Source of the DNA: Candidatus Eisenbacteria bacterium
GTDB taxonomy: Bacteria > Eisenbacteria > RBG-16-71-46
Direction: 5' to 3'
Assembly: GCA_020847735.1 (NCBI GenBank)
Contig: JADLBL010000020.1
Coordinates: 1-64,000 of the forward strand
DNA length: 64,000 bases
The notes beneath the pieces were generated by a model. That model had not been told where the DNA came from and searched no databases. It saw only the letters and a program-made list of their open reading frames with translations. Positions 719 to 10,489 of this stretch are shown here, piece after piece. Made by a program: the position numbers and the translations under genes. Every line of letters starts with the position of its first letter. Position 1 is the first letter of the stretch.

Positions 719-1735
719 CTATCGCCATTTCGTCGCCGACCACGGCCTTCCGCCGGTCACTTGATCCATCCAACCACTGCGATACGTCGTCACCGATTTT
801 GGTCGCTCCTTCGGCGGGTCGGCACCCCAAAAGTGCCGGCCCTCGGCGTTCGTGCCAGTGGACTCAATGGAGGTCTCCACCGTGACGTGATCGGACTCGG
901 GCAGCGGGTCGAGGTGCATCCGCAAGTCGATCGCCTTCGCGGCGGCGATCTCCTCGACCGGCACCACGGTGAACCCCGACATCCGGATCCGGCCGGGGCC
1001 ATCGACCACCACCTCGTCGGCGCCATAGTGGATCGTCTTGGACTTCCGCTCACCCAGTGGCATCAATCCGCCGCGGAGGTCCACAAACCCACGAGGTTCG
1101 CCCCAGCGTGCTTCCATCGAGCACTGGTGGAGCGGCAGCACGAGGCGCTCGGGGGTCTGGGGGACGACGTACAGCGTGACGTCGACGCTCAGCGATGGTT
1201 CGTGTTTGTCGGTGAGGCCGGTTGCAGCTTTGGCTCGCAACACTTGGAGTTCGGGCACGCGCGCTCGCGGAACAAGCAACCGGATGAGGTCGGTGTGACG
1301 CGCCGAGCGGGTAGCCGTGCCCTCTCGCCACGGCACCTCCCACAACCCCGAGCTGTCCGTCGGATCCTGCCGGTGCTTGACGACGTATGGCGGGCGATCG
1401 GGCTCGAAGTAGAGAACGTGCACGCCCTCTACGATCAGGTGCTCCAGGCGTGGCGGGGAGGGATCAAGGAAGCTCGCCACCTGTGTCCACCAACGCGAGA
1501 ACTCCGGATCCTTCGGCAGCGCGACCGGCCCCACGCACTCCTTGATGCCGATGAGGACGAGGAATGGCTCTGTCCGAGCGGCGTTCGCCAGCCCCGCAAT
1601 GCGACGAGCGGCCTTTGCCGGCTCCACGAACGACTCCTTCAACTCGACCCGGTCGTCCTCGACGCGTCGGCCGGCGCGTGAGTCGTCGATGACCGCAAGT
1701 GCCCACGCTTCGATCTGCGCTTTCGACTTCGGCAT
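719..1735 (-). CDS. AlbA_2 (Schlafen-type) domain protein
   Basis: A 338-residue protein. Near the N-terminus E31-LKES and the stretch at 46-64 (IAGLANAARTEPFLVLIGI) match the AlbA_2 pattern of E-x-K, a helix ending in A-N, then a hydrophobic strand. This fold is known in Schlafen-like nucleic-acid-binding proteins and in several bacterial defence genes. The C-terminal 200 residues are not recognised. The ATG at 1735 was chosen over a longer frame to 1855 because GAGAGG lies about 6 nt before it. It follows the membrane protein gene at 1791-2492 by 55 bp on the same strand, so the two probably form one transcript divergent from the methyltransferase operon. A role in regulating or assisting that operon is inference. 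Confidence 0.6.
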   Translation of the reverse strand: MPKSKAQIEAWALAVIDDSRAGRRVEDDRVELKESFVEPAKAARRIAGLANAARTEPFLVLIGIKECVGPVALPKDPEFSRWWTQVASFLDPSPPRLEHLIVEGVHVLYFEPDRPPYVVKHRQDPTDSSGLWEVPWREGTATRSARHTDLIRLLVPRARVPELQVLRAKAATGLTDKHEPSLSVDVTLYVVPQTPERLVLPLHQCSMEARWGEPRGFVDLRGGLMPLGERKSKTIHYGADEVVVDGPGRIRMSGFTVVPVEEIAAAKAIDLRMHLDPLPESDHVTVETSIESTGTNAEGRHFWGADPPKERPKSVTTYRSGWMDQVTGGRPWSATKWR

Positions 1736-1790
1736 CGTGTCCTCTCGAGAATCGTGCGTCGCGACATCCGCGCCCTCGGCCGTTGAGAGA

Positions 1791-2492
1791 TCAGACGGCG
1801 TAGGTGTCGTCGAACTTGAAAGCCTTCCACAGCGTCTGCGCATCCTGAAGGGCATTGGCCAGGACTGCTTCCAGAGCGGCCTTGTCCTCTGCTGCGGGCG
1901 GTTTGCGTTCGGGGTGTTCGCCGTAGTGGAGCTCGAGCGTGGTGCGCCAGAACCGCTCTCGGATGAACCAGCGGGCGACCAACCGCCGTATCGAGGCGTC
2001 GGTGATCAGGACGAGCCGTTCGCGATTCTGGTCGTAGCACTCACGAGCTCTGTCCAAGTGCTCGAAGAAGTTGGCGGGGATCACCGCGTCGTTCTCCACG
2101 AAGTTGATCAGGGTCGGCAGCTGCGCACGGTAGAACCATAGGCTCTCGGCCAGCATGTCGACGAAGACCTCGCGCGACGCGGAGTCGTCAGCCGCCCTCT
2201 TGCGCTCGTGGGCATCGACGGCCGTCTGGGATGCCGCTTCCCAGCCCTTTCGAGCCGTCTCAGCCGCCTTGCGCCATCCCCTGACGGCAAAGTACCCGGT
2301 GACGACGAATCCACCGATGGTCACGAACCATCCCACGACATGTGCCGCGGTGATCCCGCCGTATGGAGCCTGGTGTTCGGCGAGAGCCACCCAAGCCGTG
2401 TCGTGAACTACGAGGGTATCAACCCGCAACGAGGTGGCCAGGAGCGAGTCCTTGTGCGCGACGACGCCAAGAAGCGAGTCAATCACAGACAT
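1791..2492 (-). CDS. Hypothetical protein with one membrane segment
   Basis: A 233-residue protein. One clear transmembrane helix lies at about 49-70 (rich in G, V, F), followed by a basic stop-transfer stretch and a long charged, probably cytoplasmic helical part. ATG at 2492 has AGGGGG about 5 nt upstream. It is the first gene of a leftward pair with the AlbA_2 protein and lies back to back with the methyltransferase gene (84 bp between starts). The family is not recognised. Its layout (short N-terminal part, single TM, helical cytosolic part) recalls membrane partners of defence effectors, but that is only an analogy. Confidence 0.6.
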   Translation of the reverse strand: MSVIDSLLGVVAHKDSLLATSLRVDTLVVHDTAWVALAEHQAPYGGITAAHVVGWFVTIGGFVVTGYFAVRGWRKAAETARKGWEAASQTAVDAHERKRAADDSASREVFVDMLAESLWFYRAQLPTLINFVENDAVIPANFFEHLDRARECYDQNRERLVLITDASIRRLVARWFIRERFWRTTLELHYGEHPERKPPAAEDKAALEAVLANALQDAQTLWKAFKFDDTYAV

Positions 2493-2552: not shown

Positions 2553-2578
2553 TTTGACTGCTGACGTTCGGCTAGAGT
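2553..2578 (+). promoter_or_regulatory. Possible promoter of the methyltransferase operon
   Basis: TTGACT at 2553-2558 and TAGAGT at 2573-2578 resemble -35 and -10 boxes, but the spacer is only 14 nt. If used, transcription would start beyond the GTG at 2577 and support the TTG at 2637 as the real start of the methyltransferase. Confidence 0.3.
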
Positions 2579-3602
2579 GCCCACGACTGGCACCGTTCGC
2601 CGCCCTAACCGCCGCTCCGGCAAGAGGCTCCACGAGTTGACGACTACCGCTCTTCCGCCTGCCCGGCCCGGACAGATCAGACGCCGCAAGGTCCGGATCG
2701 CCTACGAGACCACCTACGGCACGGCCTACTACGGCACGGCCGAGAACGTCTTGGGCGACCCGTGGTTTCAGCGGCGCTACGCCGGCAAGGTTCAGCTGAT
2801 CTTCACCTCACCACCGTTCCCTCTGAACCGCAAGAAGAAGTACGGCAACCTTCAGGGCCAAGAGTACGTGAAGTGGCTGGCCGACTTCGCGCCTCGATTC
2901 AGGGAACTGCTCACGGCGGACGGGTCCATCGTGATGGAACTGGGCAACGCCTGGGAACACGGCGCTCCCACCATGTCCACCCTTGCGCTGAAGGCGCTGA
3001 TCGCGTTCCAGGAGGAGGGCAAGCTCCAGCTCTGCCAGCAGTTCATCTGCCACAATCCGGCTCGTCTCCCTGGGCCGGCACAGTGGGTGACGGTTGAGCG
3101 GATCCGGGTCAAGGACACTTACACCCATGTCTGGTGGATGTCCCCGACGGCGAATCCGGCCGCCGACAACCGTCAAGTGCTGACGGAGTACAGCCCCTCG
3201 ATGCTGAAGCTCCTGAAGACGAAGAAATACAACGCTGGCATTCGCCCTTCCGAGCACAGCATCGGCGACGAATCGTTCTTGAAGGACAACAATGGGGCAA
3301 TCCCGGCCAACGTCCTTACGATGGCAAACACGAAGGCCAACGATCCGTTCCAAGTCTACTGCCGGAAACATGGTCTCAAGGGGCACCCAGCTCGGATGCC
3401 CGCTGGGCTCCCCGAGTTCTTCGTCAAGTTTCTCACGAAGCCTGGGGACATTGTCCTCGACCCATTCGGCGGCAGCAATACGACCGGTGCCGTGGCGCAG
3501 AAGCTCAAGCGCAAATGGGCTGCGATCGAGCCGGTACCAGAGTACATCGAGGCGTCTCGCGCGAGGTTCGCCGCACTGCGGATGCTGGAGCCGGCGAGGT
3601 AG
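2577..3602 (+). CDS. Site-specific DNA methyltransferase, beta class
   Basis: Probably methylates cytosine N4 or adenine N6 in a short DNA target. TSPPF (77-81) is the catalytic motif IV and DPFGGSNTTG (295-304) the SAM-binding motif I; motif IV before motif I defines the beta class. Length (341 aa) fits a solitary methylase. GTG at 2577 has no ribosome site; TTG at 2637 has AGAGG about 9 nt upstream and may be the true start, giving 321 aa without losing a motif. It heads a four-gene operon; the helicase starts 13 bp after its TAG. Likely role: marking host DNA so that the downstream helicase, nuclease and ATPase spare it. Target base and sequence cannot be told from this sequence. Confidence 0.9.
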   Translation: MPTTGTVRRPNRRSGKRLHELTTTALPPARPGQIRRRKVRIAYETTYGTAYYGTAENVLGDPWFQRRYAGKVQLIFTSPPFPLNRKKKYGNLQGQEYVKWLADFAPRFRELLTADGSIVMELGNAWEHGAPTMSTLALKALIAFQEEGKLQLCQQFICHNPARLPGPAQWVTVERIRVKDTYTHVWWMSPTANPAADNRQVLTEYSPSMLKLLKTKKYNAGIRPSEHSIGDESFLKDNNGAIPANVLTMANTKANDPFQVYCRKHGLKGHPARMPAGLPEFFVKFLTKPGDIVLDPFGGSNTTGAVAQKLKRKWAAIEPVPEYIEASRARFAALRMLEPAR

Positions 3603-3615
3603 GGGGGATTCCTCG

Positions 3616-4845
3616 ATGTCCGCTCCTTGGCACCTCGCCCCATCGCCACGCGGCTGGCAGAACGAGGCCTTGGAACTCTGGGCCAAGGACTATCGCGGAA
3701 TCGCCAGCGTGGTTACAGGTGCGGGCAAGACGGTCTTTGCCGAAATCTGCATGCTCCGGGTTCGCGAACGTTGGCCGTCCACTCGGTTCATCGTTGTTGT
3801 ACCGACCATCGCCCTGCTCGACCAGTGGTACATCAGCCTCACCGAGGAGCTTTCAGTCCCGCAGGTGGAGATCGCCACCTATTCAGGCGTTGGCAAGGCG
3901 GCGGAGCCAGCGCGAATCAACCTCGTCGTCCTCAACACTGCACGAACTGTCGGCCCGGAACTCGCGAAGGGAGTCGAAGCGTGCCTCATCGTCGACGAAT
4001 GCCACCGGGCGGGCAGCCCGATCAACGCGAGCGCACTTCGCGGAAGCTACGTCGCCACACTTGGCCTATCGGCGACACCGACCCGGGACTACGATGAGGG
4101 ATTCAAAGAGCACCTGGTCCCTGCGCTCGGGCCGATTGTCTACGAGTACGGCTACGAGCGGGCACGGACTGAGGGTATCGTCGCCCCATTTCGGCTAGTC
4201 AACGTGAAGGTCCCGCTCCTCGATCACGAGGCTGAGGAGTACAGCACACTCACCGGACGCGTGGCTCGGTTATTCCAGATGGTCAAGTCAGGGCGTGCCG
4301 ATCCGGATCAGCTGAAGCGCCTCCTCCAGCGACGCTCAGCCTTCATCGCGAATACACGCCTGCGCATCCCGATGGCCGCGAAGATCATCGACCAGGACAA
4401 GCGCCAGCGCGCGATCATCTTCCACGAGCGGATCGCCAGCGCGAACGCCATCGCTTCGCTTCTCCGCGCGCGTCACGTCAATGCGACTATCTACCACACG
4501 CGCATCGGCGAGACGATCCGACGGGAGAACCTGCGATTGTATCGCAAAGGCCTCTTTGATTGCCTCGTAACCTGCCGCGCGCTCGACGAAGGCATCAATG
4601 TGCCTGAGACGAGAGTAGCAATCATTGCGGCATCAACGCGAAGCACACGGCAGAGGATCCAACGGCTTGGGCGCGTGCTCCGACCGGCGCCCGGTAAGAC
4701 GTGTGCAACCGTCTACACTCTGTACTCAACTCGCCCCGAGCATCAACAGTTGCTCAAGGAGTCCGAACGACTCGGCGAAGTCGCTCAGGTGCATTGGGTC
4801 AAGGGAGGTGTGGCCGCGCGTGAACAGGATCCTGATCAACGATGA
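3616..4845 (+). CDS. Short SF2 (DEAD/DEAH-like) helicase
   Basis: A 409-residue two-domain ATP-dependent DNA translocase or helicase. Seen: Q-motif-like RGWQNEALELW (12-22), Walker A VTGAGKT (33-39), Walker B DECH (127-130), motif III SATP (152-155) and motif VI QRIQRLGRVLR (346-356). It lacks any fused nuclease, which sets it apart from type I HsdR and type III Res subunits, and is close to a bare RecA-pair core like the XPB/UvrB-type SF2 group. ATG at 3616 has AGGGGGG 8 nt upstream; a longer frame to 3292 only shadows the methyltransferase. Its last 26 nt overlap the next gene, which implies translational coupling. Confidence 0.9.
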   Translation: MSAPWHLAPSPRGWQNEALELWAKDYRGIASVVTGAGKTVFAEICMLRVRERWPSTRFIVVVPTIALLDQWYISLTEELSVPQVEIATYSGVGKAAEPARINLVVLNTARTVGPELAKGVEACLIVDECHRAGSPINASALRGSYVATLGLSATPTRDYDEGFKEHLVPALGPIVYEYGYERARTEGIVAPFRLVNVKVPLLDHEAEEYSTLTGRVARLFQMVKSGRADPDQLKRLLQRRSAFIANTRLRIPMAAKIIDQDKRQRAIIFHERIASANAIASLLRARHVNATIYHTRIGETIRRENLRLYRKGLFDCLVTCRALDEGINVPETRVAIIAASTRSTRQRIQRLGRVLRPAPGKTCATVYTLYSTRPEHQQLLKESERLGEVAQVHWVKGGVAAREQDPDQR

Positions 4846-5626
4846 GTGGTACGACCCAGTAGACACCGACGCAACCTACGAAAGTGCTTTCGAGGGCGTC
4901 GTAATGGGACAGGCCGCTTCCCTGTTCCCGGGGTACCGTGCTCTCCCATTCAAGATCATCGTTGAATCCGAGTACGGGTCCGCCCGGGCTGACTACGCGC
5001 TGATTGAGCGGGGCTACCAGAACTGGTGGGTGGTCGAGGTCGAGATGGCCCATCACTCGCTCCCGGGCCACGTCGCGCCTCAGGTGCTTTCCCTCGGGAG
5101 CGCGGTCTATGGTGCCGACGCCACTGACTACATCATGGGCAAGGCTCCTGAGCTGGAACGTGTACGCGTGCAGGAGATGCTCCGGGGGCTGGCGCCCAAG
5201 ATCCTTGTCGTCGTGAACCGGCCGGTCCCGGATTGGGCGCCGCACTTGCAGCCGCTCGGTGCCGAGCTGGCAAGCTTCGAGATCTACCGTTCGGCTCGGA
5301 ACCGGTACGTGTACCGGGTCGATGGGTTCTTGCCATCGGCCGGAAGCGAGCAGGTCTCGCGGTGCTGGCTCGAGCCAACTATGCCCTTCATGCTTCGCAT
5401 CGCTTCGCCAGGGAGCGTGCCGCTCGCGAATGCAGAACCCATCCAAGTCCTCTGGCAAGGGCGAGTCACGACGTGGAAGCGCGCTGCGGCACGCGACGCG
5501 TTGTGGCTCATTTGCACCGACCGTAACCCCCTCGATCCGGGCCGACAGTACGAGATGGCCTGCCTCGAAGAGGGGGTGCTACTGTTTCGTGAGACTCCGC
5601 ACCGTGCACCGTATGGAGGTAGGTGA
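4820..5626 (+). CDS. Predicted PD-(D/E)XK nuclease of the defence operon
   Basis: A 268-residue protein with no close family that I can name. A hydrophobic strand with D58 (RADYALI) is followed 15 residues later by VVEVE (E73-x-E75) in a second strand, with an acidic helix (E21, E25) near the N-terminus. This fits a restriction-endonuclease fold whose ExK is replaced by ExE, as in BamHI (D94, E111, E113). GTG at 4820 has GGGAGG 11 nt before it; upstream frame is antisense-like junk within the helicase gene. It overlaps the helicase end by 26 nt and its TGA (5624-5626) shares one base with the next ATG. Position between helicase and ATPase supports a cleavage role. The fold is inferred from pattern only. 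Confidence 0.65.
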   Translation: MNRILINDEWYDPVDTDATYESAFEGVVMGQAASLFPGYRALPFKIIVESEYGSARADYALIERGYQNWWVVEVEMAHHSLPGHVAPQVLSLGSAVYGADATDYIMGKAPELERVRVQEMLRGLAPKILVVVNRPVPDWAPHLQPLGAELASFEIYRSARNRYVYRVDGFLPSAGSEQVSRCWLEPTMPFMLRIASPGSVPLANAEPIQVLWQGRVTTWKRAAARDALWLICTDRNPLDPGRQYEMACLEEGVLLFRETPHRAPYGGR

Positions 5627-7170
5627 TGTCCTTGAAACTTCAGATCGGTCTCGACGCCATCTCGTCGTACCGGCGGCTCTCCTACTCGGCGTGGCACGCG
5701 CTCGCCGAGTTCGTGGATAACGCGACCCAGGCGTACCTGAACAATCGAGCCACTCTCGACAAGGTCTACGCGGAGGAGGGCGACAAGCTCGAAGTCTCAC
5801 TGACGTATGATCAGGAGGGCGGCCTGATTCGGATTGCGGACACCTCCATCGGCATGAGCTACAGCGAGCTGCAGGCGGCCCTCAAGATCGGGAATCGACC
5901 GGAGATTGCCACTGGGCGGAGCCGATACGGGCTTGGGATGAAGACCGCGGCTTGCTGGCTGGGCGACCTGTGGACGGTGCGAACGAAGAAGTATGGCGAG
6001 ACAAGCGAGTACTCGATCGAGGTGGACGTCCCCCGGGTTGCCGGCGGCGACGATGACCTGCGAGAGCGTGTGGCCTCGGGCTTCGCTCCCGAGAAGCACT
6101 ACACGATCATCGAGATCACGAAGCTCCACCGAGTCTTCCAGGGTCGCACCATCGGCAAGATCAAGAACTTTCTCCGTTCCATGTATCGGGAGGACTTTCG
6201 CCACAGCAGGTTGCGGCTGCTCTGGCAGGGCCAAGAGCTCACGTGGGAGGAACTTGATGCCCAGCTCCTGCGCTCGCTGGAAGACAAGATCTACAAGAAG
6301 GAGTTTAACTTCGAGATCAACACCAAGCCCGTTCGGGGCTGGGTTGGGGTCCTTGCCTCCGGAAGTCGTTCGATGGCTGGGTTCTCCATTCTGCACTGCG
6401 GGCGTGTCGTCAAGGGCTGGCCCGACGCGTGGCGGCCGTCGACGCTCTTTGGCCAGATCCTCGGCAGTAACGACCTGGTCAATCAACGGCTAGTTGGCGA
6501 AGTCCACTTGGATGCGTTCGAAGTCAGCCACACAAAGGACGACATCCTGTGGCTTGGCGACGAGGAGGACTTGGTTGAGGAGAAGCTCGAGCAGGAGTGC
6601 CGGGCCTACCGCGAGGTGGCTAGGAAGCATCGTGTCCGAGGCGGAGATCAGCGCGGGCCGTCCGAACTCGAGACGAAGACGGCCCTCGATGAGCTTCAGA
6701 AGGAGCTCGCCTCGCCTGAGATCATCGACACCATTCGACTCGAAACTGCGCCGGACCCCGACACCATCGAGCGTACGTTCAGGACCATCATCGATGCGGA
6801 ACGATCTAGAGAGGCCACGATTCGTGTCGAGATCGACGGCATTGTCCTGAAGGCCTATCTGACCGGAGATCACTCGGAGAACGATCCTTACTTCGTGTGC
6901 GACGCGACGCAGCTGAACGAAGTCGCGGTGGTAATCAACCGGTCACACCCGCACTGGACCCAGCTCTCAGGGCCGGGGAACGTTCTCAACTTCCTCCGCC
7001 ATTGCATCTACGACGCCCTGGCCGAACACATGGCACGTCACAAGAAGGCGACGATCCAGCCCGACACCATCAAGATGTTCAAGGATCGCTTCCTGCGGGT
7101 GCCGATGGAGATGGAGATGGGATCTGGCGGGGGCGGCGAAGAGGTCGCTGACGAGACGCCGGCCCCTTGA
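5626..7170 (+). CDS. MORC/MutL-like GHKL ATPase
   Basis: A 514-residue protein with a full Bergerat ATP-binding fold: N box AEFVDNA (27-33, E28, D31, N32), G1 box DTSIGM (72-77) and G2 box GRSRYGLGMK (97-106). Hsp90, MutL and MORC proteins use this fold as an ATP-driven clamp. The N-box and G-box spelling and the C-terminal part without any histidine-kinase dimer domain favour the MORC/MutL side. The C-terminus (about 330-500) is unassigned and ends in a glycine/acidic tail. ATG at 5626 follows GGAGG by 6 nt and overlaps the nuclease stop by one base (TGATG). Such ATPases next to methylases and SF2 helicases have been described as restriction-like systems in bacteria. Confidence 0.85.
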   Translation: MSLKLQIGLDAISSYRRLSYSAWHALAEFVDNATQAYLNNRATLDKVYAEEGDKLEVSLTYDQEGGLIRIADTSIGMSYSELQAALKIGNRPEIATGRSRYGLGMKTAACWLGDLWTVRTKKYGETSEYSIEVDVPRVAGGDDDLRERVASGFAPEKHYTIIEITKLHRVFQGRTIGKIKNFLRSMYREDFRHSRLRLLWQGQELTWEELDAQLLRSLEDKIYKKEFNFEINTKPVRGWVGVLASGSRSMAGFSILHCGRVVKGWPDAWRPSTLFGQILGSNDLVNQRLVGEVHLDAFEVSHTKDDILWLGDEEDLVEEKLEQECRAYREVARKHRVRGGDQRGPSELETKTALDELQKELASPEIIDTIRLETAPDPDTIERTFRTIIDAERSREATIRVEIDGIVLKAYLTGDHSENDPYFVCDATQLNEVAVVINRSHPHWTQLSGPGNVLNFLRHCIYDALAEHMARHKKATIQPDTIKMFKDRFLRVPMEMEMGSGGGGEEVADETPAP

Positions 7171-7207
7171 AATGTGGAGCCAGTCGTAACCGTCGTCTGA
7201 CGCCCAC

Positions 7208-7237
7208 CCTTCCGCGGAGCGTCACGATGCCGGAAGG
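7208..7237 (+). terminator. Possible terminator after the defence operon
   Basis: CCTTCCG (7208-7214) and CGGAAGG (7231-7237) can pair across a 16-nt loop and are followed by TTCTCTC. The stem is short and the loop long, so this is a weak candidate. It sits between the convergent ATPase gene and the membrane protein gene ending at 7277. Confidence 0.35.
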
Positions 7238-7276
7238 TTCTCTCGAAGAGGTGGTTGCCAGCAGGGCTGGGGCAAA

Positions 7277-7741
7277 CTAGTTAGCCGTCGTGTCCGCTAT
7301 CGCAGTACGGCGTGGGACTTGGGCGCTCTTCGCTCGCGTGACAAGGAACATGAGAGCCACTGTGAGTACTAGGCCCAAGGACACGCCCGCTCCGGGATCT
7401 CGGCTCCCATATTCGTAGATGCGCTGCTGAACGCTCGGCAATACCGCGAATCCGACCGCCATGCAGCAGCTCCAGATCGCTTGGCGCCGGGATCGCTGAA
7501 GTAGCGCAATCGCGCTCAAGACCACAAACACGCCGACTGAGACTTGGCCTCCCACCCGAAGTTGCCTGAAGTAGGATGCATCCGCGGCGGCTATCAGAGC
7601 CTGATGAACACCGTCGCAGCCTGGCCCCCCACAGATCTTTGACCAACTCGGTGCGGGCAGGGTGATTTCAAGGAACAGGCTTGCGAGGAGGAGGACAAGT
7701 ATCGCAAGGAGGATGGGGCGTAGTGATGAGCTAATATGCAT
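7277..7741 (-). CDS. Hypothetical four-helix membrane protein
   Basis: A 154-residue very hydrophobic protein with about four membrane segments: an N-terminal one, then two in the middle and one near the C-terminus before a basic tail. A Cys-rich loop (CGGPGC) follows the first segment, outside the membrane by the positive-inside rule. ATG at 7741 was preferred to an upstream codon at 7759, which would fall within the hairpin. TATAAT lies just before the ATG, so the mRNA may be nearly leaderless. Family not recognised; no link to the convergent defence operon is visible beyond position. Confidence 0.6.
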   Translation of the reverse strand: MHISSSLRPILLAILVLLLASLFLEITLPAPSWSKICGGPGCDGVHQALIAAADASYFRQLRVGGQVSVGVFVVLSAIALLQRSRRQAIWSCCMAVGFAVLPSVQQRIYEYGSRDPGAGVSLGLVLTVALMFLVTRAKSAQVPRRTAIADTTAN

Positions 7742-8799: not shown

Positions 8800-9243
8800 T
8801 CAATGGCCCTCATGGTCTTCGCCCAGCGCCCGATCGAGTTTTCGGCGTGTTCGACGACTAGGCGGGTGGTTCCGCAGCTCGACGTTCCTCACGGTCCGAA
8901 TGTCGACCCCGGCCCGCTGTGCCAACTCTCCCTGCGTAAGCCCGAGCCGGAGCCGGGCCGCCCGAACTTGCCCGGGCGGGCCGTCCAGTTCGGGCACGAG
9001 GCCGCGCCCGAGGACGGCTTCGATCGACGGCCAACGTCGCGCGAGCGGGAGGGACTCGTCTCGCTCCCAGGCGGCGACGGTCACCTCCCAGACGTCTAGC
9101 CGCTGGGCGAGGGTGTGTTGCGTCAGCCCGAGATCCATCCGGCGCTGGCGGATTCGCTGCCCGAGCGTTTCCGGCTTGTGCGGATAACCCCTTGGGAACA
9201 CGCGTGGTTTGCAGCCGGACAATGTGCGTTGAGTAAATGGCAA
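8800..9243 (-). CDS. Double XRE-family helix-turn-helix protein
   Basis: Up to 147 residues with two XRE (HTH_3) units: about 27-70 (LGQRIRQRRMDLGLTQ...WERDE) and about 90-137 (RAARLRLGLTQGELAQRAGV...). Such tandem-HTH proteins bind DNA and are often carried by islands and phages. The family usually begins a few residues before YPHKPETLG. TTG at 9243 is the first possible start and GTG at 9201 the next, and neither has a ribosome site. The frame begins right at the point where comM homology stops (about 9250), so its own promoter and start may have been lost. Confidence 0.65.
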   Translation of the reverse strand: MPFTQRTLSGCKPRVFPRGYPHKPETLGQRIRQRRMDLGLTQHTLAQRLDVWEVTVAAWERDESLPLARRWPSIEAVLGRGLVPELDGPPGQVRAARLRLGLTQGELAQRAGVDIRTVRNVELRNHPPSRRTRRKLDRALGEDHEGH

Positions 9244-9250
9244 CGCTGGC

Positions 9251-10294
9251 CCACGGGTTCATCGCCGCCACCAGCAGCGGCCGCGCCGGGAAGTGCGCGT
9301 GGCCGCTCGCGCGCGTGAGGTGCACGGCGCCGGTCTCGAGCGGCTCGCGCAGGGCGTCGAGCAGCGTGCGCGGGTACTCCGCGAACTCGTCGAGGAAGAG
9401 CACTCCCTGGTGCGCGAGCGACAGCTCGCCCGGACGCGGCGGCGATCCGCCGCCGATCAGACCGGCGCGGGTGGTCGAATGATGAGGGGCGCGAAACGGG
9501 CGCTCGCACATCATGCCGTTGCCGGGCAGGCGCAGCCCTGCGGCCGAGTGGAGCCGCGTCACGACCAACGCTTCCTCGGGTTCGAGGGGCGGGAGCAATC
9601 CGGGCAGCCGCACCGCGAGCATGGACTTGCCCGCGCCCGGCGGGCCAATGAGCAGCAAGTGATGTCCGCCTGCGGCGGCAATCTCGAGCGCGCGCCGCGC
9701 CATCGCCTGCCCGCGCACATCGGCCAGGTCCGCCCGGCCGTCGGCGCGCGCGTCGGGCGACGCCGGCGCGGCTCGCGGCAGCGATTCTCCGCGCAGCCAT
9801 TCGAAGGCTTCGAGCAGCGTCGCGGCGGCGAGGACTTCGAGCCCCTCGACGAGCGCGGCCTCGGGGGCGGCTTCGGCGGCGCAGACCAGCGTGCGCGCGC
9901 CGGCACGCCAGGCGGCTTCGGCAAGCGAAAGGGTTCCGCGCGTGCCTCGCAGACGACCGTCCAGGGCAAGCTCGCCGAGCGCGGCCGCGCGCTCGAGCCG
10001 CTCGGACGGCGCCTGTCCGGTCGCGACCAGCATCCCGAGCGCGAGCGCGAGGTCGGCCGACGCGCCCTCCTTGCGGCGGCCGGCGGGGGCGAGGTTCACG
10101 GTGACGCGGCGCTCGGGCGGCGCGAGTCCGGTGTTGCGCAGCGCCGGCCACACCCGCTCGCGCGCCTCGCGCGCGGACGAATCGGGCAGGCCGACCATCA
10201 CGAACCCGGGCAGCCCCGGGCCCATGTCCACCTCGCAATCGGCCGCGAAGGCTTCGAGTCCCCACAGCAGCGCGGTGCGCACGCGGGCGAGCAT
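9251..10294 (-). pseudogene. comM: Truncated comM (Mg-chelatase-like YifB family)
   Basis: ComM is a AAA+ hexameric helicase that helps branch migration during natural transformation. The first 348 codons are intact: the N-terminal fold (WGLEAFAADCEVDMGPGLPG), Walker A GPPGAGKS and Walker B LFLDEF are all seen, up to LLVAAMNP. The family then continues with a Cys-rich PCPCG segment and about 150 more residues; here the sequence changes after the first two bases of the expected Cys codon (9251) and reads into unrelated DNA until 8858. ATG at 10294 has GAGGA just before it. The C-terminal third is not in the window. Loss by insertion of the 1-9250 block is likely; an assembly join is possible. 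Confidence 0.85.
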
Positions 10295-10489
10295 GGTCCT
10301 CGCGCGGGGGCGGGTCGTGCCCGCGGGTTGCAAGAGCCGTGCGCGGCCGGCCGAGTTCGCGAGCTGCGGCCGCGTGCATGCGCGGCAGCCGGCTTCGAGG
10401 TCGCAGAGGGGTCTGCGCGGGCCGTTCGCGACGTGTCCGGCGTGCACGATCCGGCCACGCCGTGCGGGGCGGCGCCGCCGAGACGGGCT

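What the first reader, a model, noticed from the sequence alone, without database searches (positions are those of the whole stretch)
2577..7170. Four-gene methylase-helicase-nuclease-GHKL ATPase operon, a candidate defence system
Seen: one tight operon (13-bp gap, 26-nt overlap, 1-nt overlap) with a beta-class DNA methylase, a bare SF2 helicase of 409 aa, a predicted PD-(D/E)XK nuclease and a MORC/MutL-like GHKL ATPase, in a less GC-rich block. Known: Iyer, Abhiman and Aravind described MutL/MORC-type ATPases coupled to restriction-modification genes, and helicase-methylase-ATPase (Hma) systems are listed in PADLOC. Inference: the exact four-part set with a separate ExE nuclease may be a distinct type in which the GHKL clamp acts as the switch between sensing unmethylated DNA and cutting.
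Basis: partly seen in the sequence, partly recalled or inferred. Interest (0 to 1): 0.85.

Follow-up and report, generated by a model that had tools for sequence, protein, structure and literature searches.

The report
Four-gene restriction system with MORC ATPase
A mobile bacterial gene cluster pairs a DNA-marking enzyme with a DNA motor, an unnamed DNA-cutting enzyme and a relative of animal and plant MORC proteins; it recurs across at least nine bacterial phyla, is very probably a defence system against foreign DNA, and no defence-system library searched here lists it as a system.

Summary
In detail: four intact, same-strand genes at 2577-7170 form one closed unit in a low-GC block. The methylase is a full-length M.PvuII relative (predicted N4-cytosine). 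The helicase is an XPB/Rad25 core without the N-terminal domain. The nuclease is a confidently modelled restriction-endonuclease-like protein with invariant E21, D58, E73-x-E75, H84 and Q88, and no named family. The ATPase is a prokaryotic MORC: it carries the MORC signature, and its best fold matches are MORC2 and MORC3. The complete set recurs in 24 other genomes, in two gene orders; helicase always directly precedes nuclease (28/28). Helicase, nuclease and MORC distances correlate at r=0.93-0.94; the methylase is looser (0.5-0.6) and sometimes replaced. Seven loci with upstream sequence lack the helicase, so methylase-nuclease-MORC is the smallest form seen. This is a new, unlisted variant of the MORC-linked restriction-modification systems of Iyer et al. 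2008. It is not Hma (whose ATPase is DUF499); MZA is a cousin with Z1 helicase and DUF4420 nuclease. Most likely mechanism (inferred): methylation marks self DNA, MORC clamps unmodified DNA and licenses cutting by the helicase-nuclease pair. The 'clamp is the switch' idea fits but is untested.

The parts
2577..3602 (+). PvuII-like beta-class DNA methyltransferase, N4-cytosine predicted (341 aa; the GTG start is uncertain, homology begins at residue 41)
   Evidence: PF01555 5e-31; M.PvuII 1BOO single-sequence E 3e-75, family profile E 7e-98; TSPP and DPFxG invariant in 30 relatives
3616..4845 (+). XPB/Rad25-like SF2 helicase core without the N-terminal domain (409 aa)
   Evidence: ResIII and Helicase_C; archaeal XPB 2FWR profile E 1e-51, matched from its residue 91; PbeA helicase part
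4820..5626 (+). Unnamed restriction-endonuclease-like nuclease, E21-D58-E73xE75 with H84 and Q88 (268 aa)
   Evidence: No library match; AlphaFold2 pLDDT 92.6; residues conserved in 34 relatives apart from gaps in one truncated row
5626..7170 (+). Prokaryotic MORC-type GHKL ATPase (514 aa)
   Evidence: HATPase_c_3 9e-19; MORC signature GFSILHCGRVV at residue 252; Foldseek best MORC2/MORC3, E 2e-17; all GHKL motif residues invariant in 38 relatives
8800..9243 (-). Double helix-turn-helix gene at the comM junction, island boundary (context, not part of the system proper)
   Evidence: PF01381; DNA of the junction
9243..10447 (-). N-terminal half of comM (Mg-chelatase ChlI/YifB), interrupted at AAMNP: probable insertion site of the island
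   Evidence: PF13541 and PF01078; the C-terminal half is elsewhere

Best explanation
An ATP-dependent restriction-modification system on a mobile island. Steps and status: (1) the PvuII-like methylase marks host DNA, probably with N4-methylcytosine (family assignment shown; modification and site inferred). (2) The MORC ATPase dimerises on ATP and clamps or loops DNA; on unmodified DNA it licenses the nuclease (inferred from MORC, MutL and VcSduA). (3) The XPB-like helicase core and the ExE nuclease work as one helicase-nuclease unit that opens and cuts DNA (pairing shown by gene order and co-evolution; a complex is inferred). (4) The helicase helps but is not essential to the design, because relatives with only methylase, nuclease and MORC exist (shown in genomes).
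For: Active-site residues of all four enzymes are conserved across relatives. 24 other loci hold the complete set in two gene orders, in nine phyla. Helicase directly precedes nuclease in 28/28 helicase-bearing loci. Distance matrices of helicase, nuclease and MORC correlate at 0.93-0.94. Helicase-less loci keep methylase, nuclease and MORC. Methylase is homologous to M.PvuII, a restriction-modification enzyme. MORC operons are mainly restriction-modification systems (PMC2292703). A GHKL-PD-(D/E)xK protein, VcSduA, defends against phage and needs both ATPase and nuclease residues (PMC12137116). The island is low in GC, absent from the 46 other phylum members searched, and sits in a split comM.
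Against: No activity has been shown for any member. The nuclease has glutamate where the catalytic lysine usually is, and its fold matches are weak, so cutting is predicted, not shown. Two loci carry the other three genes with no methylase in the same cluster (L012, L027) and one (L036) with none found within the fetched stretch, which is odd for a restriction system unless the methylase acts from elsewhere. The target site and the trigger are unknown. The matrix correlation partly reflects shared descent of whole loci.
Confidence: 0.6

Rival explanations
1. The helicase-nuclease pair does the restriction by itself, like CglI/NgoAVII or type III enzymes, and MORC is a regulator, assembly factor or safeguard rather than the trigger.
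For: Helicase and nuclease are always adjacent, mostly with overlapping ends. CglI and NgoAVII restrict with a separate helicase-like ATPase and nuclease gene (PMC4267653; PMC5737866). Archaeal XPB works with its nuclease partner Bax1 (PMC7293015), and Bax1 is among the weak fold matches of the nuclease.
Against: Seven loci with upstream sequence at hand lack the helicase but keep nuclease and MORC, so MORC goes with the nuclease more steadily than the helicase does. MORC correlates with the nuclease as tightly as the helicase does (0.93 and 0.94).
Confidence: 0.2
2. A defence system that does not restrict by methylation state: MORC or helicase senses phage replication or recombination intermediates, the nuclease kills the infected cell or the phage, and the methylase only protects the host from stray cutting or is a neighbour.
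For: The methylase is the least coupled gene (r 0.49-0.60) and is replaced or not in the cluster in some loci (L012, L013, L016, L027, L036, L040). Hachiman shows a helicase-nuclease pair that senses DNA damage (PMC12278908, abstract).
Against: A methylase lies in the same operon in nearly all loci, first in both main gene orders, and its catalytic residues are invariant.
Confidence: 0.12
3. A mobile DNA repair or mismatch-type system, MutL-MutH-like, with no role in defence.
For: MORC/MutL kinship; Iyer et al. allow repair roles for stand-alone relatives (PMC2292703); EndoMS, a mismatch nuclease, is among the weak fold matches.
Against: Patchy distribution, absence from the phylum, low-GC island in a split comM; on the contig holding the other comM half a serine integrase and a ThsB-like TIR gene.
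Confidence: 0.05

Closest known systems
MORC restriction-modification operons with Rad25-like helicase (Iyer, Abhiman and Aravind 2008, PMC2292703)
   Same: MORC ATPase with the signature motif, Rad25/XPB-like SF2 helicase, RE-fold nuclease, DNA methylase in one operon
   Different: There the nuclease is commonly fused to the helicase; here it is a separate, unnamed ExE family and the helicase is a bare core; methylase PvuII-like (they report mostly cytosine and rarely adenine methylases); helicase-less and permuted forms are not described in the text read
MZA system (MzaABCDE; NCBIfam/PADLOC models) and MZA-like loci L041-L055
   Same: MORC/MutL-type ATPase beside methylase, SF2 helicase and PD-(D/E)XK nuclease
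   Different: MZA-like loci have Z1 helicase and DUF4420 nuclease with m5C methylase; ours has XPB core, unrelated nuclease and PvuII-like methylase; the ATPases form separate clades
VcSduA (paraMORC3, Shedu type; PMC12137116)
   Same: GHKL ATPase controlling a PD-(D/E)xK nuclease in phage defence, shown by mutants
   Different: One fused protein with DUF4263 nuclease; no methylase or helicase needed
CglI and NgoAVII restriction systems (PMC4267653, PMC5737866)
   Same: Separate methylase, nuclease and helicase-like ATPase genes; R2N2 helicase-nuclease complex for CglI
   Different: Different nuclease type (BfiI/PLD-like, from general knowledge); no MORC
PvuII restriction-modification system
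   Same: Methylase homologous over its full length
   Different: The nuclease here has no PDB sequence match, so none to R.PvuII; helicase and MORC added
Archaeal XPB-Bax1 helicase-nuclease (PMC7293015)
   Same: XPB core next to a nuclease; Bax1 among the weak fold matches
   Different: No DUF790 match, no XPB N-terminal domain, repair context
Hma (PADLOC 2021, PMC8565338)
   Same: Helicase, methylase and ATPase by name
   Different: m5C methylase and DUF499 ATPase; no Hma model among the matches

Membership tests
Prokaryotic MORC ATPase | Intact GHKL ATP-binding motifs | tested here: met
   E28, N32, D72, G76, G102, G104, K106, T160 invariant in 38 rows; PF13589
Prokaryotic MORC ATPase | GhXhhpXXRhl motif in the S5 domain | tested here: met
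   GFSILHCGRVV at residue 252 in the window protein; strict pattern in most order-A and helicase-less relatives, not in order-B ones, which keep the G and R
Prokaryotic MORC ATPase | Fold closest to MORC rather than MutL or Hsp90 | tested here: met
   Best five hits MORC2 and MORC3, E about 1e-17; Hsp90/TRAP1 close behind; model pLDDT 82
MORC restriction system with Rad25-like helicase (Iyer type 1) | Rad25/XPB-like helicase in the MORC operon | tested here: met
   Profile match to archaeal XPB E 1e-51
MORC restriction system with Rad25-like helicase (Iyer type 1) | RE-fold or HKD nuclease fused to the helicase ('commonly', not always) | tested here: not met
   Helicase is a bare 409-aa core, nuclease a separate gene here and in relatives
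MZA | Z1-domain helicase MzaC | tested here: not met
   No Z1 or MzaC match to the helicase
MZA | DUF4420 nuclease MzaD | tested here: not met
   No DUF4420 match; hhalign probability 0.1%
MZA | MzaB ATPase above the curated cut-off | tested here: not met
   28.5 bits against a cut-off of 850
Hma | DUF499 ATPase HmaC | tested here: not met
   ATPase is GHKL/MORC; no Hma or DUF499 match; HmaC as DUF499 from PMC12839542
PvuII-type N4-cytosine methyltransferase | Full-length homology to M.PvuII with its motif order | tested here: met
   Residues 41-332 on 8-295 of 1BOO, E 3e-75
PvuII-type N4-cytosine methyltransferase | m4C made at CAGCTG | not testable with these tools
   Needs methylation-aware sequencing
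PD-(D/E)XK nuclease superfamily | Restriction-endonuclease-like core with acidic active site | tested here: inconclusive
   Topology and invariant E21/D58/E73/E75 fit; lysine replaced by glutamate; no fold match below E 0.001, though many weak ones are PD-(D/E)XK proteins
XPB-Bax1 machinery | Bax1 (DUF790) nuclease partner | tested here: not met
   No PF05626 match to the nuclease; only weak fold resemblance
Type III restriction-modification | Res subunit with helicase and nuclease in one chain | tested here: not met
   Separate genes
Restriction-modification system | Restriction of unmodified DNA, protection by the methylase | not testable with these tools
   Needs phage or plasmid assays

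The most novel reading that the evidence does not exclude
A distinct class of restriction system in which the MORC clamp, not the helicase, is the obligatory ATP-driven trigger: MORC entraps DNA, responds to its methylation state and licenses a lysine-free (E-D-ExE) nuclease, with the XPB-like motor an optional add-on. The helicase-less three-gene form would be the simplest natural MORC machine and a model for what eukaryotic MORCs do on DNA.
Probability: 0.25. Interest if true: 0.82.

Novelty: new variant of a known kind. Interest (0 to 1): 0.58.

Why it matters
What a MORC ATPase does to DNA is a long-standing question in chromatin biology, and the literature searched here held no experimental study of a prokaryotic MORC restriction system. 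This family offers compact systems, some in named strains (Solimonas soli DSM 21787, Zavarzinia marina Adcm-6A, Flagellimonas sp. S3867), including a three-gene version without helicase, so that the roles of MORC, nuclease and motor can be separated by simple mutants. It also adds a nuclease family that the libraries searched here do not hold.

Tried and rejected
Hma kinship: rejected. Membership in MZA: rejected on helicase and nuclease, though the ATPases are cousins. Nuclease related to DUF4420: no. Nuclease as Bax1: no Pfam support, weak fold resemblance only; the DUF790 search of the own genome says nothing about the nuclease itself. The first genome-contig scan, seeded with the single nuclease sequence, confirmed no relative, presumably because its patterns were too specific; seeding with the ATPase worked. 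That scan is pattern-based, so locus counts are not prevalences. Nuclease in viral contigs and PHROGs, ATPase in phages and PHROGs: nothing. Plasmid hits of the ATPase were MZA-like loci. The nuclease profile in 385 and 396 genomes gave 2 and 4 hits, two of them weak, distant relatives with the ExE...H...Q pattern in other contexts. A hidden other helicase in helicase-less loci: none among the large neighbouring ORFs tested.
Full report
OBSERVATION. Flanking ORFs point the other way on both sides, so the operon is a closed unit of four genes. It lies in a 60-65% GC block that begins at the contig end; the rest of the window is mostly 68-76% GC.

PROTEINS. (1) Methylase: PF01555 and a full-length relative of M.PvuII, an N4-cytosine methyltransferase. 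The order of motifs, TSPPF before DPFGG, is that of the beta class. m4C is therefore the prediction; the target site is unknown. (2) Helicase: an XPB/Rad25 core. The family profile matches archaeal XPB from its residue 91 onward, so the N-terminal domain is missing. The best defence-library match is the helicase part of PbeA. (3) Nuclease: no match in Pfam, NCBIfam, PADLOC, PHROGs or PDB sequences, apart from one meaningless profile hit at E 0.47. AlphaFold2 on 34 relatives gives pLDDT 92.6. E21 lies on a helix, D58 just before a strand, E73-x-E75 on a strand followed by a helix with H84 and Q88, as expected of a restriction-endonuclease-like core; a beta-rich C-terminal region follows. These residues are conserved in every row except for gaps in one truncated one. 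A glutamate stands where the catalytic lysine usually is. Fold matches are weak (none below E 0.001) but include Bax1, EndoMS and MGME1, and many PD-(D/E)XK proteins in the viral library. (4) ATPase: GHKL with all motifs intact and the MORC signature of Iyer et al. at residue 252; best solved-structure matches are MORC2 and MORC3, E about 1e-17, with Hsp90/TRAP1 close behind.

CONSERVATION. A scan seeded with the ATPase returned 54 loci. The full four-gene set occurs in 24 of them: methylase-helicase-nuclease-MORC (10) and methylase-MORC-helicase-nuclease (14). Two more have helicase-nuclease-MORC and two MORC-helicase-nuclease without a matching methylase in the cluster; one of these, L040, has a gene that looks like an m5C methylase next door instead, by its N-terminal sequence only. 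Helicase directly precedes nuclease in 28 of 28 loci with a helicase, mostly with overlapping ends, in both orders. Seven loci (L013-L015, L017, L018, L020, L038) have methylase-nuclease-MORC and no helicase although upstream sequence is at hand; the large neighbouring ORFs that were tested are not helicases. The members span Chloroflexota, Acidobacteriota, Actinomycetota, Pseudomonadota, Planctomycetota, Bacteroidota, Spirochaetota, Cloacimonadota and Electryoneota. None of the other 46 genomes of the window's phylum that were searched has the ATPase, including four of the same genus. The nuclease profile found 2 of 385 genomes in one class and 4 of 396 in one phylum, including the centre genomes known beforehand, so the system is rare and patchy.

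CO-EVOLUTION. Pairwise distance matrices of nuclease, helicase and MORC correlate at 0.93-0.94; the methylase correlates with them at 0.49-0.60. Permutation shows that the correlations are not chance, but shared descent of whole loci contributes. The methylase is divergent in L013 (418 aa; its Pfam match suggests a changed motif order) and L016. The reading is that helicase-nuclease-MORC is a fixed restriction module and the methylase a more exchangeable partner. In the MORC tree the order-B loci form one clade (100/100); the helicase-less loci need two to three changes, so the helicase was probably lost or gained more than once, though several deep forks are unresolved.

COMPARISON. The remaining ATPase relatives, L041-L055, form a separate group; L044, scanned in full, carries an m5C methylase, a Z1 helicase and a DUF4420 nuclease, and two plasmid relatives are annotated with the same kind of set. 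This is the MZA-like arrangement and probably the third type of Iyer et al. (their helicase motif is found in four of these loci). Their nucleases show no relation to ours. Iyer et al. described MORC with Rad25-like helicases, the nuclease commonly fused to the helicase (PMC2292703). So the present system belongs to the known kind 'MORC-linked restriction-modification' and is a variant not held as a system in PADLOC, NCBIfam or Pfam as searched here. VcSduA shows that a GHKL ATPase can control a PD-(D/E)xK nuclease in phage defence (PMC12137116).

MECHANISM. Inferred: methylation of self; MORC clamps and loops unmodified DNA (DNA looping was proposed by Iyer et al.); the nuclease is licensed by MORC; the helicase opens DNA for the nuclease. 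Shown: gene content, conserved active sites, constant helicase-nuclease pairing, optional helicase. Not shown: any activity.

CONTEXT. The island ends inside comM. The N-terminal half of comM is at 9243-10447 (minus strand) and stops at AAMNP; the C-terminal half occurs twice on contig C3, each copy holding the GWLGHPKRGC stretch at its start. Beside one of them lies a 533-aa large serine recombinase, then a ThsB-like TIR gene. Double-HTH genes that look alike lie at comM junctions in the window and on C3. This fits integrative elements in comM; the link between the two contigs is not proven.

VERDICT. Real, intact, conserved and unlisted; a new variant of MORC-linked restriction-modification, with an unnamed nuclease family and a natural minimal form that makes the MORC question testable.

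Noticed in passing
window 9243-10447 (-); L062 13119-13607 (-) and about 6880-7406 (-): comM is split: one N-terminal half in the window, two C-terminal halves on contig C3, both beginning near GWLGHPKRGC; looks like insertion of one or more integrative elements at one site in comM.
   Followed up: partly
L062 13496-15097 (-): A 533-aa large serine recombinase overlaps one comM C-terminal half, a likely integrase of the comM-inserted element.
   Followed up: partly
window 8800-9243 (-) and L062 7414-8133 (+): Similar double helix-turn-helix genes, both starting MPFT, sit directly at comM junctions on two contigs.
   Followed up: no
L062 15583-18885 (-): A ThsB-like TIR gene and an 898-aa HerA/TraG-like ATPase beside the integrase: more defence-island content in the same genome.
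   Followed up: partly
L080 6961-7941 (+), L081 255-1310 (-): Distant relatives of the nuclease with the same ExE...H...Q pattern stand without MORC, one in an island with restriction genes; L081 carries a DUF5655-like part matching PADLOC candidate PDC-S18.
   Followed up: partly
L040 5899-10490: Helicase-nuclease-MORC with an apparent m5C methylase on the other strand instead of the PvuII-like one; its MORC groups with the MZA-like ATPases on a long branch: a possible intermediate.
   Followed up: partly
L012 611-1879 (+), L027 15306-16562 (-): PvuII-like methylases with an N-terminal extension beginning MGRPKA, set apart from the helicase-nuclease-MORC cluster and beside similar 410-aa genes of unknown function.
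   Followed up: no
window 719-1855 (-): 378-aa protein in the same island without any Pfam, PADLOC, NCBIfam or PHROG match.
   Followed up: partly
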